From contig JAFRJM010000042.1 of the NCBI GenBank assembly GCA_017432285.1, forward strand, positions 62,001-126,000: DNA of 64,000 nt, read 5' to 3'. This DNA comes from Oscillospiraceae bacterium. GTDB lineage: Bacteria > Bacillota > Clostridia > Oscillospirales > Ruminococcaceae. How positions within the stretch are numbered: position 1 is the first letter of the stretch; each line of letters begins with the position of its first letter. Positions 34,745 to 39,152 of this stretch are shown here, piece by piece. A program made the position numbers and the translations under genes. The notes below the pieces were generated by a model that did no database searches, was not told where the DNA came from, and worked only from the letters and a program-made list of their open reading frames with translations.

Positions 34745-35332
34745 TCATTCAGAAACATAGGAGATGGATACAGAGCACTTGTTCTTCTCCCACCCCGCCC
34801 GTCTCAGCGCATCTGTGAGCGACTTGCGGATCTCATTCGCTCTGCCGTTCAATTCTATTTCTTTCAGAGCTTCTGCGCTCTCTACCAGCAGGACGCATTC
34901 CAGCACCTCACTGTGGTCTGCTGTCAGCCCGACATACTGCGCCTTACAGATCTCAGGGTATTTATCTTTTGTATCCCAGAGGACCTTGAGAAGAGTATTC
35001 TCTTCCTGATCTTCTTTTCTAACCTTCTCTGTTTCTTTTACCCATGCAAGGATCAATTCCTGAAACTCATCCATGGTAACAGTACAGTCATCTTCTTCCG
35101 CAAAAGTGTCTCTAATAATTACGGTATCTCCATCGTGATACAGTTCGTATCTGTTCCCGGAGAACTCATAGACATCACCGTCCATGACGGCACGGATCTC
35201 GCCGGCAAATGACTCCACTTCTGTCGCTATCAGGTTGGATAAGGCCTCATATCCTACCGGTAATACCGGAACGACTTTGACTTTGATTCTTTTGGGACTT
35301 CTGAGTTCAACAGTACGAAATGAATATTCCAT
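34745..35332 (-). CDS. Unknown protein, putative immunity protein of the EndoU toxin
   Basis: A 195-residue cytosolic protein that I do not recognise. Residues 1-105 look like a beta-rich N-terminal domain (YSFRTVELRSPKRIKVKVVPV, then YELYHDGDTVIIRD), the remainder is mixed and acidic with a helical tail. No signal peptide or membrane segment is seen. Its ATG follows the EndoU stop by one base with AAGGGGA inside the end of that gene, so the two are translationally coupled. Being cytosolic, downstream and coupled to an exported RNase domain fits an immunity protein that protects the producer; this is inference from organisation. Confidence 0.6.
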   Translation of the reverse strand: MEYSFRTVELRSPKRIKVKVVPVLPVGYEALSNLIATEVESFAGEIRAVMDGDVYEFSGNRYELYHDGDTVIIRDTFAEEDDCTVTMDEFQELILAWVKETEKVRKEDQEENTLLKVLWDTKDKYPEICKAQYVGLTADHSEVLECVLLVESAEALKEIELNGRANEIRKSLTDALRRAGWEKNKCSVSISYVSE

Positions 35333-35333
35333 A

Positions 35334-36005
35334 TTAATCCCCTTCCTTAACCGGATATGCTGTAGTGATTATGCCCTTTTTAGTCAGCGCCATATCAATT
35401 TCCATTCCATCGTTTGTCAGACCTGCATAAAGACTGTCGTCGATCTGGACCCTGTTTTCATATGCCTCGTTTATAGCATCTATTACATCCTGAGGCGACC
35501 ATGTGTCCGGAAAAAATGTCGAATACCCTTTGTTTCCCGATTTGTTCACTCCGTTCACACGTACTTTTGCAGTATATACACCAAAACTATCAGGTTCACT
35601 CTCCGTACCTGCAATGATCTCACCAGGGCTTCCCACGATGCCATTATAATGATATCCTGTAGCCTTTCCGCTGTCGTTTATCGTACCGAGGAAAATATGC
35701 TCTATCGTGGAATCGCGAAAATGCTCAGTGTTCTCAAGATCTTCTAGATCCGCTATCGTGTACTGTGTATGTTCAAGCTCGTTTTTCTGGTCAATATCAT
35801 TCGGCAGAATCTCTACAGGCTGAGTTTCCGGTCTGTTATCTGTATTGCTGCCCGGATCGATCTGTACCTGACCGTAGTTATTGCTGTCCGGGACCTCGAT
35901 CACCTCATGGCTGTCAGGTTCCAGAAAATTCAAAGGGAACAGCAGATATACAGCTGCCGCTACAACAAGGAGCACTAAGATAGATAATACTCTCTGAAAT
36001 TTCAT
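35334..36005 (-). CDS. Exported EndoU-type RNase domain protein
   Basis: A 223-residue protein. Residues 1-28 form an uncleaved-type or signal hydrophobic segment (VLSILVLLVVAAAVYLLFP) with a disordered linker to about 80. The domain holds EHIFLG with His 103, GYHY with His 119, NKSGNKGYSTFFP with Lys 155/159, and the final TTAYP (Thr 215, Tyr 217). The 16-residue His-His spacing, the downstream Lys and the T-x-Y pair match the EndoU RNase active site of XendoU and of bacterial polymorphic toxins. I therefore predict a metal-independent endoribonuclease released or displayed outside the cell. ATG 36005 has GAGAGG upstream. The partner gene is coupled downstream. Confidence 0.8.
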   Translation of the reverse strand: MKFQRVLSILVLLVVAAAVYLLFPLNFLEPDSHEVIEVPDSNNYGQVQIDPGSNTDNRPETQPVEILPNDIDQKNELEHTQYTIADLEDLENTEHFRDSTIEHIFLGTINDSGKATGYHYNGIVGSPGEIIAGTESEPDSFGVYTAKVRVNGVNKSGNKGYSTFFPDTWSPQDVIDAINEAYENRVQIDDSLYAGLTNDGMEIDMALTKKGIITTAYPVKEGD

Positions 36006-36065
36006 TTTACGCCTCTCAGTATTGTTCACTCCATCATTTTCCCATGCTTAGATGAAATTCGCAAT

Positions 36066-36118: not shown

Positions 36119-36913
36119 TTATGAGAGTAAGACCGAATCCGTTTCTTCTTCAATACCGGCCACTTCAGAGAATTTCTTAAGAAGCTCTTCTCTCGTTATA
36201 GCTCTTTTTTCATCTCCGGATATATCCAAAATGATCTTTCCTTCATTCATCATGATCAGCCTGTTACCGTATCTGATGGCATCCGACATATTATGTGTAA
36301 TCATCATGCACGTAAGATTGTTCTTTTTAACAAGCTCATCTGAGATCTCAAGCACCTTGACTGCAGTCGCAGGGTCAAGAGCAGCTGTATGTTCATCCAG
36401 GAGCAGTAACTTAGGCGCTTTCAGAGTGGACATAAGAAGCGTAACTGCCTGTCTCTGTCCTCCTGACAGTGTCGAAACAGAAGTTTCCATTCTTTCTTCA
36501 AGTCCTAATCCAAGAGATCTGAGCTGCTCACGGAAATACTCCCTCTCCTCTTTGGTGACACCCCATCCGAGCCCCCTCCTGGTGCCTCTTCTGTATGCCA
36601 GCGCTAGGTTTTCTTCAAGCTGCATGTCCGGTGATGTTCCCATTGCGGGGTCCTGAAATACCCTTCCGATGAATGCAGCTCTTTTATAATCTGGTAATGC
36701 GGTCACATCGTTCCCGTCAAGTATTATCTTTCCTTCATCGATAGGCCATGTACCTGCAATGGCATTAAGCAATGTGGATTTGCCTGCTCCGTTGCCGCCT
36801 ATCACAGTAACGAACTCTCCTGGTTCAAGATGAAGGTTCAGATCCACAAGAGCCTTTTTCTCATTTACCGTTCCCGGGACGAAAGTCTTATACACATGTT
36901 CTACTCTAAGCAT
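36119..36913 (-). CDS. ABC transporter ATPase of a TrpXYZ-type importer
   Basis: A 264-residue ATPase. Walker A GGNGAGKSTLLNAIAG, signature LSGGQRQAVTLLMS, Walker B LLLLDEHTAALDP and switch His (MITHNMS) are all present. The DEHTAALDP form is characteristic of the tryptophan/tyrosine-type ATPases accompanying DUF534-type binding proteins. ATG 36913 has AAAGGAGG upstream. It overlaps the permease stop by 8 bases. It energises uptake of an aromatic amino acid, probably tyrosine (see the leader peptide). Confidence 0.88.
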   Translation of the reverse strand: MLRVEHVYKTFVPGTVNEKKALVDLNLHLEPGEFVTVIGGNGAGKSTLLNAIAGTWPIDEGKIILDGNDVTALPDYKRAAFIGRVFQDPAMGTSPDMQLEENLALAYRRGTRRGLGWGVTKEEREYFREQLRSLGLGLEERMETSVSTLSGGQRQAVTLLMSTLKAPKLLLLDEHTAALDPATAVKVLEISDELVKKNNLTCMMITHNMSDAIRYGNRLIMMNEGKIILDISGDEKRAITREELLKKFSEVAGIEEETDSVLLS

Positions 36914-37922
36914 TGTTCTTTCCTCCTTTGCGGAACTTTGCAAACGAAGACGTTCTCTGTTCCTTGATATACGGTATAGCGAGGAAAACAGCGACGATCA
37001 CTGCGGTGAACAGTTTAAGGTCATTGGTATTGAGACGCAGCCATAGGACAAGTATGACGACGCTGTAGTAGACGATACCACCCAGTATGACACATGCCAG
37101 TCTGAACGAGAAATTGGGTCTGTTGTGGGATAAGACTTCAGTAAGCGCATCACCTATGATAACTGCAGCGAGTCCAATAACACTGGCGCCTCTGCCCATA
37201 TTGATATCTGCAAAACCTTGATACTGTGCGACCAGACCGCCTGCAAAAGCGACAATCCCATTGGACAATGCGAATCCTATAAGCTTCATGTGGTCGATGT
37301 CGATGCCCTGCGCACGGCTCATAACAGGATTGTTACCGGTAGCACGAATAGCACTTCCCTGCTCCGTGCCGAAATACCAGTAAAGCACAGCAATCAGAAC
37401 CGCAGAGATCAAAGCTCCGAAAAGAATAGCTTTCGGAATGAATCTGCCTGAGACTACAAGATCATACTTGTCCACGCTTACAGCGACATTTGCTGCCATG
37501 TCCATGATATGAAGGTTAACTGAATACAGAGCCAGCTGTGTCAGGATACTGGCTAATATTGCAGGAATGCCCAGATAACAATGAAGAAGACCTGTGCATA
37601 GACCGCAGAGCACTCCGGCTAAAGCTGATATAACAAGTGCAAATCCCGCAGGATATGAAGTCCCTTGTACGACATTGATCCCCAAAGTATTGAGCAAAGC
37701 TGATGCGAAAGGAGATACACCGTTTGTGATCATCATCGCAGAAACAGCTCCGCCGGTAGCAAAGGAGCCCTCAACTGTAAGATCAGATACTTTCAGAAGT
37801 CTGAATGTGATATACACTCCGATCGCCATGATACCCCAGAGGATCCCTTGCGCGATTCCTCCGGGGATGTTTTTCAGCAGTTTTATTGGGTCTAATAAAG
37901 AGAAATAATCAATAAAATTCAT
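36906..37922 (-). CDS. ABC transporter permease, TrpY-like
   Basis: A 338-residue membrane protein with about eight to nine hydrophobic segments. The run QGILWGIMAIGVYITFRLL followed by DLTVEGSFATGGAV is typical of the permease family (BPD_transp_2) that accompanies TrpX-type binding proteins, related to branched-chain amino acid permeases. It lies between the binding lipoprotein and the ATPase, all in one direction. Only one permease gene is present, so it should form a homodimer. Confidence 0.88.
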   Translation of the reverse strand: MNFIDYFSLLDPIKLLKNIPGGIAQGILWGIMAIGVYITFRLLKVSDLTVEGSFATGGAVSAMMITNGVSPFASALLNTLGINVVQGTSYPAGFALVISALAGVLCGLCTGLLHCYLGIPAILASILTQLALYSVNLHIMDMAANVAVSVDKYDLVVSGRFIPKAILFGALISAVLIAVLYWYFGTEQGSAIRATGNNPVMSRAQGIDIDHMKLIGFALSNGIVAFAGGLVAQYQGFADINMGRGASVIGLAAVIIGDALTEVLSHNRPNFSFRLACVILGGIVYYSVVILVLWLRLNTNDLKLFTAVIVAVFLAIPYIKEQRTSSFAKFRKGGKNNA

Positions 37923-37950: not shown

Positions 37951-38910
37951 TTATTCATCCATGTTCAAGGCTTCATAATCAGATCCAAATGTCAATCCGT
38001 ATACTTCCGCCAAAACCTGGTTGAATTCATGCTTTGTCTCTGGAGCATATTCGACCTGCAATGTCTTTATATCCTGTCCTTCAACGAGCACTTTGTAAGC
38101 CATGAGGCCTGTCTGATATCCGAGATCATAGTAGCTGATAGATAAAGTCGCGACTCCGCATCCTTTGCAAAGATTCTCCTCTCCGCAGATGATAGGTGTC
38201 TTTGAATTCAATGCCACGTTATTGATCGTTTCTGCACAGTTTGCAGCCGTATTGTCTGTAGGAATATACAGAACATCACATTCATCGCATGCAGCCTGTG
38301 TAACAGCAGAAATGTCGTTTGTATCAGTAAATGCAAATTCCACTGCTGTCAGTCCAAGGTCTGTGAGATACTGAGAAACCATCTTGACCTGATACTTTGA
38401 GTTCGCCTCTCCGGAACAAAAAAGGATGCCGACTTTCTTTGCCTGAGGGAATATATCCTTCACCATTTTGGCCTGCTCATCCAACGGTGCCAGATCTGAA
38501 GTTCCTGACACGTTCCTTCCTGATGCACCGGAAAAGTCATCAATTCCAAGTGCAGCGCCGTATTCCGTAACAGAAGTTCCTAAAATCGGGATCTTGTCTG
38601 TTGCGTTGGCACAGGCATTGACTGCCGGTGTGGCATTGGCCATGATCAGGTCGACCTGATCGTTAACAAACCCATTTGCTATAGTAGAGCAGTTCGCCTG
38701 CTCGCCAGAAGCATTTTTAACGTCAAAAACTACTTTGTCTCCAAGTTTATCTTTCAGAGCATCCTGAAACCCTTCAGTTGCAGCATCCAATGCAGGGTGA
38801 GGTGCGAACTGAAGGACTCCTACACGGAAAGAGTCAGATTTTTTGCCCCCGCAACTCACAAGCGAAAAGCAAAGAGATAACAACAATAAAAATGCAAATA
38901 CCTTTTTCAT
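37951..38910 (-). CDS. ABC transporter substrate-binding lipoprotein, TrpX/DUF534 family
   Basis: A 319-residue solute-binding lipoprotein. The signal MKKVFAFLLLLSLCFSLVSC ends at the lipobox LVSC. Family features are FRVGVLQFAPHPALDAATEGF, IMANATPAVNACA, and SDLAPLDEQAKMVKDIFPQAKKVGIL (the last matches the SD...I...P region common in this family). Characterised members bind tryptophan or tyrosine. It starts at 38910 with TAGGAGAAAG upstream, 16 bases after the attenuator terminator. The leader peptide supports an aromatic amino acid, most likely tyrosine, as cargo. Confidence 0.9.
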   Translation of the reverse strand: MKKVFAFLLLLSLCFSLVSCGGKKSDSFRVGVLQFAPHPALDAATEGFQDALKDKLGDKVVFDVKNASGEQANCSTIANGFVNDQVDLIMANATPAVNACANATDKIPILGTSVTEYGAALGIDDFSGASGRNVSGTSDLAPLDEQAKMVKDIFPQAKKVGILFCSGEANSKYQVKMVSQYLTDLGLTAVEFAFTDTNDISAVTQAACDECDVLYIPTDNTAANCAETINNVALNSKTPIICGEENLCKGCGVATLSISYYDLGYQTGLMAYKVLVEGQDIKTLQVEYAPETKHEFNQVLAEVYGLTFGSDYEALNMDE

Positions 38911-38925
38911 GAATCTTTCTCCTAA

Positions 38926-38967
38926 ACAAAAATAAAGAGCGACTATACCAGCCGGTAAAAGTCGCTC
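38926..38967 (-). terminator. Attenuator terminator before the importer operon
   Basis: GAGCGACT (38967-38960) pairs with AGTCGCTC (38944-38937), followed by TTTATTTTTG. The 5' arm plus TTTACCGGC (38966-38951) can instead pair with GCCGG-GA-TAAAA-AG-CGCT (39001-38984) as an anti-terminator. A separate pair, CAGCGCT (39051-39045) and AGCGCTG (38989-38983), excludes the anti-terminator. This is the classical three-way arrangement of a leader-peptide attenuator. Confidence 0.85.
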
Positions 38968-39005
38968 ATAGTTACAGTTAAACAGCGCTTTTTATCCCGG
39001 CAATC

Positions 39006-39086
39006 CTATTTCAAAGCATAAAAACGATAGCCCGCGTAATATCGAGCGCTGCAATAGATGTTCTTGACATCGATCTTCACAGCCAT
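39006..39086 (-). CDS. Tyrosine-rich leader peptide (26 residues)
   Basis: ATG at 39086 follows AGGAGGAACG. The peptide has Tyr at positions 11, 16, 17, 20 and 23 and Phe at 22 (IYCSARYYAGYRFY), then TAG. It is too short and too biased for a normal protein and lies just before the attenuator, between promoter 39124-39152 and the terminator. When Tyr-tRNA is scarce a ribosome should stall near codons 11-17 over codons 12-14, which form the 5' arm of the blocking hairpin, so the anti-terminator forms and the importer is expressed. The model follows from visible pairing and the known logic of the trp and phe attenuators. Confidence 0.88.
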   Translation of the reverse strand: MAVKIDVKNIYCSARYYAGYRFYALK

Positions 39087-39123
39087 CGTTCCTCCTGCTG
39101 AACTAAAAGATTGCTTGTTTCGT

Positions 39124-39152
39124 AGTTTAAAGCTTTTAAGCGCTAAAGTCAA
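39124..39152 (-). promoter_or_regulatory. Promoter of the tyrosine attenuator/importer operon
   Basis: TTGACT (39152-39147) and TAAACT (39129-39124) on the minus strand with a 17-base spacer, 38 bases before the leader ATG. No T-box sequence was seen in the leader. Confidence 0.7.

What the first reader, a model, noticed from the sequence alone, without database searches (positions are those of the whole stretch)
38926..39152. Complete tyrosine leader-peptide attenuator controlling an ABC importer
Seen directly: promoter (TTGACT-17-TAAACT), ribosome site AGGAGG, a 26-codon ORF with five Tyr codons (11, 16, 17, 20, 23) and one Phe, then three competing hairpins. Hairpin 1:2 pairs codons 12-14 (CAGCGCT) with AGCGCTG at 38989-38983. 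Hairpin 2:3 pairs GCCGG/TAAAA/CGCT (39001-38984) with AGCG/TTTTA/CCGGC (38966-38951). Hairpin 3:4 is the terminator at 38967-38937 with a T-run. Each arm is shared, so the states exclude each other exactly as in the trp and phe attenuators. Firmicutes usually control amino-acid genes with T-boxes, and I found none here. The Tyr bias predicts that the TrpX-type importer downstream carries tyrosine, a substrate not otherwise deducible. Inference: low Tyr-tRNA turns the importer on.
Basis: partly seen in the sequence, partly recalled or inferred. Interest (0 to 1): 0.9.

Follow-up and report, generated by a model that had tools for sequence, protein, structure and literature searches.

The report
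Tyrosine-sensing switch before tyrosine importer
A short tyrosine-rich decoy gene and a transcription stop signal sit in front of a predicted bacterial tyrosine importer and probably switch it on when tyrosine runs short, a kind of control known for other amino acids.

Summary
Folding statistics of the window alone are weak: each alternative helix has p = 0.052. Comparison carries the case. Six of six genus members with an orthologous importer have a Tyr/Phe-rich leader ORF and a terminator. Twelve further orthologues do too: four in the same family, seven in four other families of the order, one in a Bacilli-titled record. A strict scan finds Tyr-rich leaders in 9 of 166 upstream regions; 200 shuffles gave mean 0.2, maximum 2. 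The pocket predicts tyrosine independently: all 18 leader-controlled binding proteins have the Glu that contacts the tyrosine hydroxyl in CD0873, as do 7 of 7 relatives behind Tyr (UAC) T-boxes and 0 of 4 behind Phe (UUC) T-boxes. Corrections: the window's 2:3 helix is not conserved in the genus; most orthologues lack a leader; T-boxes serve tyrS, pheS and a TrpX-like paralogue in this genome. Best reading: a ribosome-mediated attenuator reading tRNA-Tyr, replaced by Tyr T-boxes in some relatives. My searches of open-licence papers showed no tyrosine-specific case. Regulation is untested; co-sensing of Phe is possible.

The parts
39124..39152 (-). promoter TTGACT-17-TAAACT, overlapped by an imperfect palindrome ACTTTAGCGCTTAAAAGCTTTAAACT (39149-39124), a possible operator
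   Evidence: sequence; its right part is conserved in all six genus members, its left part is degenerate in the L002 group; the palindrome is enriched upstream of orthologues
39091..39096 (-). Shine-Dalgarno AGGAGG of the leader ORF
   Evidence: sequence
39006..39086 (-). leader ORF, 26 codons + TAG, MAVKIDVKNIYCSARYYAGYRFYALK, five Tyr and one Phe
   Evidence: Tyr/Phe-rich leader in 6 of 6 genus members with an orthologous importer; strict Tyr enrichment 9 of 166 vs shuffle max 2
39045..39052 (-). arm 1 (GCAGCGCT, codons 12-14)
   Evidence: 1:2 p = 0.052
38984..39001 (-). arm 2 (GCCGG, UAAAA, CGCU)
   Evidence: 2:3 p = 0.052; not conserved pairwise
38937..38967 (-). arms 3:4, intrinsic terminator with T-rich tail
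   Evidence: -16.7 kcal/mol; three pairs changed on both sides among five genus sequences, 0 or 1 when slid, but 52 of 500 column shuffles also reach three
37951..38910 (-). lipoprotein substrate-binding protein (PF04392), predicted tyrosine-binding
36906..37922 (-). permease (PF02653)
   Evidence: found downstream in all 18 leader-bearing loci
36119..36943 (-). ABC ATPase (PF00005)
   Evidence: found in the stretch held for 17 of 18 leader-bearing loci; the stretch of the other, L231, ends in the permease

Best explanation
The leader is a ribosome-mediated transcription attenuator that reads charged tRNA-Tyr. When tyrosine is plentiful the ribosome runs to the leader stop codon, covers the start of arm 2, arm 3 is free and the terminator 3:4 forms. 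When Tyr-tRNA is short the ribosome stalls at Tyr codons around arm 1 (codons 11, 16, 17), arm 2 pairs with arm 3 and RNA polymerase reads into the tyrosine ABC importer. Shown by sequence: anatomy, terminator, genus-wide leader, recurrence of Tyr-rich leaders over the order, tyrosine-type binding pocket. Inferred: translation of the leader, stalling, antitermination, direction of control. Other lineages have a Tyr T-box at this place, or neither device, some of them with a promoter palindrome.
For: Six of six genus members with an orthologous importer have leader and terminator. Further Tyr-rich leaders before orthologues, each with a terminator of -11.6 to -28.3 kcal/mol: L004, L005, L008, L009 (family), L062, L065, L072, L079, L103, L106, L110 (order), L034 (record titled uncultured Bacilli bacterium; six Tyr in 18 codons). 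Control: 9 of 166 regions under strict criteria against mean 0.2, max 2 in 200 shuffles; Trp 0 of 166. Leaders are scattered over the binding-protein tree: 18 of 71 rows, at least 7 changes of state (quick method). Antiterminator pairing above shuffles over 14 non-redundant leaders combined: Fisher p = 0.004, 0.005 and 0.003, in a test where E. coli trpL, pheL and hisL give switch p = 0.025, 0.005 and 0.57. Substrate: the best PDB relative is CD0873, reported to bind Tyr through Glu-263, with Tyr-279 excluding Trp (PMC6816091, passages). 68 of 68 orthologues aligned carry Glu and Tyr there, as do the three other leader-bearing ones. Relatives behind Tyr T-boxes 7 of 7 Glu, behind Phe T-boxes 0 of 4 (Fisher p = 0.003).
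Against: Alternative helices in the window are borderline (p = 0.052 each). Singly, most relatives are no better: 2:3 p runs from 0.022 to 0.72 over 18 leaders; of 17 leaders tested for 1:2 only L040 is under 0.05 and L065 has p = 1.0. The modelled change in arm-3 occupancy between stalled and finished ribosome is small in the window (0.76 to 0.63, p = 0.26). The window 2:3 pairs are not conserved in five genus sequences; 1:2 has letters in only two of five over six of its eight pairs, and terminator covariation is reached by 52 of 500 shuffles. In the window the terminator wins at equilibrium at every ribosome position, so the switch must be kinetic, if it exists. Most orthologues have no leader, and Glu-263 is as constant in them, so the pocket speaks for the substrate, not for the regulation. 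L042's ORF runs past the homologous stop into arm 2. No transcript data.
Confidence: 0.8

Rival explanations
1. General aromatic (Phe plus Tyr) attenuator: stalling at either codon gives read-through, tyrosine being only part of the signal.
For: L002, L039, L040 and L041 carry 4-6 Tyr and 4-5 Phe, L042 three of each; L106 has 5 and 5; L009 has 3 Tyr and 6 Phe. Phe is the other amino acid above its shuffle maximum (6 of 166, max 5). The C. glutamicum AroR leader with Phe-Tyr-Phe is reported to answer to Phe, not Tyr (PMC11802643, passage).
Against: The window leader has 5 Tyr to 1 Phe; L034, L103, L110 have 6-7 Tyr and 0-1 Phe (L008 has 6 Tyr and 3 Phe); the pocket of every leader-controlled binding protein is of Tyr type.
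Confidence: 0.25
2. Nascent-chain arrest: the peptide itself stalls the ribosome when a ligand binds, as with TnaC (recalled), rather than codon starvation.
For: A loosely shared core (A/V)R-x(1-2)-AG occurs in L001, L008, L065, L072 and L079, beyond Tyr count.
Against: L034, L103 and L110 lack the core yet have runs of Tyr; in six loci the DNA at or near this place forms an in-ORF hairpin, which can explain its conservation as RNA.
Confidence: 0.07
3. Constitutive or promoter-level control: the terminator merely lowers expression and regulation comes from a repressor at the ACTTTA palindrome; the Tyr codons are incidental.
For: The palindrome is exact in the leaderless Pseudobutyrivibrio loci L031, L032, L033, L035 and within one mismatch in the window.
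Against: Tyr-rich leaders recur with a terminator in several families; some relatives have Tyr T-boxes at this place, which also read tRNA-Tyr.
Confidence: 0.08

Closest known systems
trp, phe and his leader-peptide attenuators of E. coli (trpL, pheL, hisL)
   Same: leader ORF rich in the sensed amino acid, overlapping arms, intrinsic terminator; the same script was run on all three
   Different: tyrosine as signal, importer as target, low-GC Gram-positive relatives; no sequence likeness looked for
Leader peptides in Firmicutes and Tenericutes: His before hisS* and hisZ in bacilli (PMC2965389), Leu before ilv-leu in S. aureus (PMC5794164), Phe-coding uORFC-13-1 before aroF in Acholeplasma (PMC8632094); passages read
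   Same: leader read by the ribosome, with a terminator, in groups rich in T-boxes
   Different: other amino acids and biosynthetic or tRNA-ligase targets; none for Tyr and none for this importer in the passages seen
AroR leader of Corynebacterium glutamicum (PMC11802643, passage)
   Same: leader with Phe-Tyr-Phe
   Different: reported as unresponsive to Tyr availability; controls aroF
Tyr T-box before orthologous importers (L003, L089, L100, L120, L152)
   Same: same position, same gene, same tRNA as signal
   Different: the RNA binds tRNA directly; no leader translation
TrpX of Streptococcus suis with T-box (PMC9382623, passages); CD0873 of C. difficile (PMC6816091, passages)
   Same: binding proteins of aromatic amino acid ABC importers; CD0873 is a sequence relative
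   Different: TrpX serves Trp uptake under a T-box; CD0873 binds Tyr and is 34% identical to the window protein

Membership tests
ribosome-mediated leader-peptide attenuator | short ORF enriched in codons of the regulated amino acid, with a ribosome site | tested here: met
   5 of 26 codons Tyr, with SD; 9 of 166 regions vs shuffle max 2. Translation itself not tested
ribosome-mediated leader-peptide attenuator | intrinsic terminator between leader and first gene | tested here: met
   18 of 19 candidate leaders; the 19th, L125, had only a -2.0 kcal/mol hairpin and was dropped
ribosome-mediated leader-peptide attenuator | mutually exclusive antiterminator sharing arm 3 | tested here: inconclusive
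   window p = 0.052; 14 leaders combined p = 0.004; exact helix not conserved
ribosome-mediated leader-peptide attenuator | target gene serves the sensed amino acid | tested here: met
   Tyr-type pocket, by sequence only
ribosome-mediated leader-peptide attenuator | starvation-dependent read-through | not testable with these tools
   needs expression data
T-box (RF00230) | match to the T-box model at the locus | tested here: not met
   no match at the gathering score in the window or L001
TrpX equivalog NF041285 | score over the curated cut-off of 390 bits | tested here: not met
   238.2 bits
tyrosine-binding PF04392 proteins (CD0873 type) | Glu at 263 and Tyr at 279 of CD0873 | tested here: met
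   the Glu tracks Tyr vs Phe T-box specifiers 7 of 7 vs 0 of 4
tyrosine-binding PF04392 proteins (CD0873 type) | measured tyrosine binding | not testable with these tools
   needs protein

The most novel reading that the evidence does not exclude
Probability: 0.6. Interest if true: 0.6.

Novelty: new member of a known kind. Interest (0 to 1): 0.5.

Why it matters
If true it adds tyrosine to the amino acids read by leader peptides, in a genome that otherwise uses T-boxes, including one for tyrS, and gives a natural series in which the same gene is controlled by a translation-based or a tRNA-binding sensor of the same tRNA. It also gives a usable substrate rule: residue 263 (CD0873 numbering) separates Tyr from Phe T-box importers in 11 of 11 relatives examined, which helps to annotate a family whose named model is tryptophan-binding.

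Tried and rejected
L125 (four Tyr) was rejected as a leader for want of a terminator. Leader search in 28 loci of the class-level search: no SD-led Tyr-rich ORF before a usable gene start. Four of the 28 (L207, L209, L216, L228) had unusable starts; L220 and L223 repeat L135 and L137. A first scan read minus-strand loci the wrong way round and was redone. A first pattern for three pockets failed and was replaced by an alignment; the second Fisher value printed assumed those three and is not used. A covariance model of the attenuator, a structure model and a fold search were not made. The TrpX-like paralogue in this genome, behind a UGG T-box, has Ala at 263 but Tyr, not Gln, at 279, so the Gln rule for Trp does not hold there. 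Rfam was run on the window, L001-L030, L053-L059, 20 class-level loci and the 17 loci with a T-box-like core; the other upstream regions were screened by a short pattern only, and 7 of the 17 did not reach the cut-off, so T-boxes may be undercounted.

Literature: searches (open-licence PMC papers) showed no tyrosine-specific leader attenuator. Passages of PMC2494555 list Tyr T-boxes with NhaC-type transporters. Vitreschak 2008 was not held; Panina 2003 and Lopatovskaya 2010, seen only in reference lists, were not read. Absence from print is therefore not established.

Full report
WHAT IS THERE. The lipoprotein is followed by a PF02653 permease and an ABC ATPase. At its cut-offs Rfam finds only tmRNA and SRP RNA in the window.

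IS IT MORE THAN CHANCE. In this one sequence the paired arms are borderline: fold z = -2.03, 2:3 p = 0.052 against dinucleotide shuffles, 1:2 p = 0.052 against synonymous recoding. The terminator has -16.7 kcal/mol. Over the orthologues the picture is clear. In 166 upstream regions, ORFs of 12-55 codons with ATG, SD, at least four Tyr and 12% Tyr occur in 9; 200 dinucleotide shuffles of all regions gave mean 0.2, maximum 2. Tyr stands out by far; Phe is slightly over its shuffle maximum (6 of 166, max 5), Trp is 0. By inspection with looser limits, 19 candidate leaders were taken up, 18 of them with a terminator, among 194 upstream regions. The 194 include two repeated places, some genomes with two or three paralogues, and more distant homologues down to about 33% identity.

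THE RELATIVES. Of 9 genomes of the genus, 6 hold an orthologue (63% identity or more) and these 6 all have leader and terminator; the other 3 hold only distant homologues or fragments. Leaders read, for example, MNRSFYGRYFYYGAYFRALYFDMVDKS (L040) and MTSSKNIAELYRRARFFTGYRFYCNAIRTAGKPSER (L042, whose ORF runs on past the homologous stop). Beyond the genus: L004, L005, L008 and L009 in the same family; L062, L065, L072, L079, L103, L106, L110 in four other families of the order; and L034, a record titled uncultured Bacilli bacterium, MKHVNYYFYGYYYPRNDQ. L103 has seven Tyr in a row, L008 and L110 six. The permease follows in all 18, the ATPase in 17, the 18th stretch being too short to show it. 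A quick tree of 71 binding proteins puts the 18 leader rows in scattered places, at least 7 changes of state; 22 of its 68 inner branches are weak. Pseudobutyrivibrio loci L031, L032, L033 and L035, next to the genus on that tree, have no leader: their promoter lies about 60 nt from the start codon.

STRUCTURE ACROSS RELATIVES. With five of the six genus sequences aligned, the terminator has three pairs changed on both sides; slid structures have 0 or 1, but 52 of 500 column shuffles reach three. Helix 1:2 has no such pair, and only two sequences have letters over six of its eight pairs. The window's 2:3 helix has none and is paired no better than in shuffles. The L002 group pairs other segments: CGGCAG (codons 6-8) with CUGCCG after the stop, and AAGCUGC with GCGGCUU of arm 3. 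L004 and L106 have 11-13 bp in-ORF hairpins holding Tyr codons; a segment within or just after the far side is complementary to arm 3. So the logic recurs, the register does not. With ribosomes modelled at Tyr codons or at the stop, arm-3 occupancy over 14 non-redundant leaders combined exceeds shuffles (p = 0.005 stalled, 0.003 switch); E. coli trpL, pheL, hisL in the same test give stalled p = 0.19, 0.03, 0.10 and switch p = 0.025, 0.005, 0.57. For the window the stalled value has p = 0.055 and the switch is weak (0.76 to 0.63, p = 0.26). In the window the terminator wins at equilibrium at every ribosome position, so control must be kinetic.

WHAT IT CARRIES. NCBIfam's TrpX model gives 238 of the 390 bits needed. 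The best PDB relative is CD0873, reported to bind tyrosine; the paper names Glu-263 (bond to the tyrosine hydroxyl) and Tyr-279 (bars Trp) as selectors, with Ala at 263 in the Phe- and Trp-bound relatives (PMC6816091, passages). 68 of 68 orthologues aligned have Glu and Tyr there, with or without a leader, and so do the three other leader-bearing ones. T-boxes give an independent label. Of 194 regions, 18 had a T-box-like core; L003 was already known, I sent the other 17 to Rfam and 10 passed. Read by me at the specifier position, calibrated on this genome's T-boxes before tyrS (UAC), pheS (UUC), a thrS-like gene (ACC) and the TrpX-like gene (UGG), seven are UAC and four UUC. The UAC ones have Glu 7 of 7, the UUC ones Ala, Ala, Tyr, Tyr. 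Two of the seven UAC and three of the four UUC cases are more distant homologues (43% identity or less), so relatedness and substrate are partly confounded.

THE GENOME'S OWN T-BOXES. Seven matches, six over the cut-off. Genes behind them: tyrS (NCBIfam), pheS and the TrpX-like PF04392 protein (Pfam), and, recognised by eye only, thrS, metN, alaS and an amino-acid binding protein. So the cell uses a Tyr T-box for tyrS and, it seems, a leader peptide for the Tyr importer. The assembly is 54.57% complete.

MECHANISM AND MEMBERSHIP. The best reading is ribosome-mediated attenuation by charged tRNA-Tyr. It meets the anatomical features of that class (leader, terminator, matching target); the antiterminator is inconclusive and the starvation response untested. 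It is not a T-box. Whether Phe is co-sensed, as five of the six genus leaders would allow, is open.

PRIOR ART. Leader peptides for His (bacilli), Leu (S. aureus) and a Phe-coding uORF (Acholeplasma aroF) are in print (passages), and C. glutamicum AroR has a Tyr codon but is reported not to answer to Tyr (passage). Searches of open-licence papers gave no tyrosine-specific one. I therefore rate it a new member of a known kind, with a new amino acid and a kind of target not seen in those passages.

Noticed in passing
window 39149-39124 (-); L031, L032, L033, L035, L065 and others: Operator-like palindrome ACTTTA-N14-TAAAGT (and ACTTTA-N6-TAAAGT), in many loci over the -35 to -10 region: at most one mismatch in 16 and 20 of 166 upstream regions, maximum 2 and 3 in ten shuffles. 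Its binding protein is unknown.
   Followed up: partly
G000:C2:23764-23785 (-), upstream of the T-box of L056: A one-mismatch match to the window-derived form of the palindrome lies upstream of the T-box of an amino-acid binding protein in the same genome.
   Followed up: no
L155, L167, L180, L183 (full genes in L232-L235): PF04392-type binding proteins behind Phe (UUC) T-boxes with Ala or Tyr in place of the Tyr-contacting Glu: probable phenylalanine importers.
   Followed up: partly
G000:C8:11660-12836 (L046, L057): TrpX-like paralogue (28% identical) behind a UGG T-box, with Ala at 263 but Tyr rather than Gln at 279.
   Followed up: partly
L008, L009, L042, L065, L072, L079: Short GC-rich hairpin inside the leader ORF, in most of them over codons for (A/V)R..AG, possibly a pause hairpin.
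   Followed up: partly
window 34745-36029 (-): An EndoU nuclease-domain protein (PF14436) with a hydrophobic N-terminus, followed by a 195-aa protein without a Pfam match, downstream of the importer.
   Followed up: no
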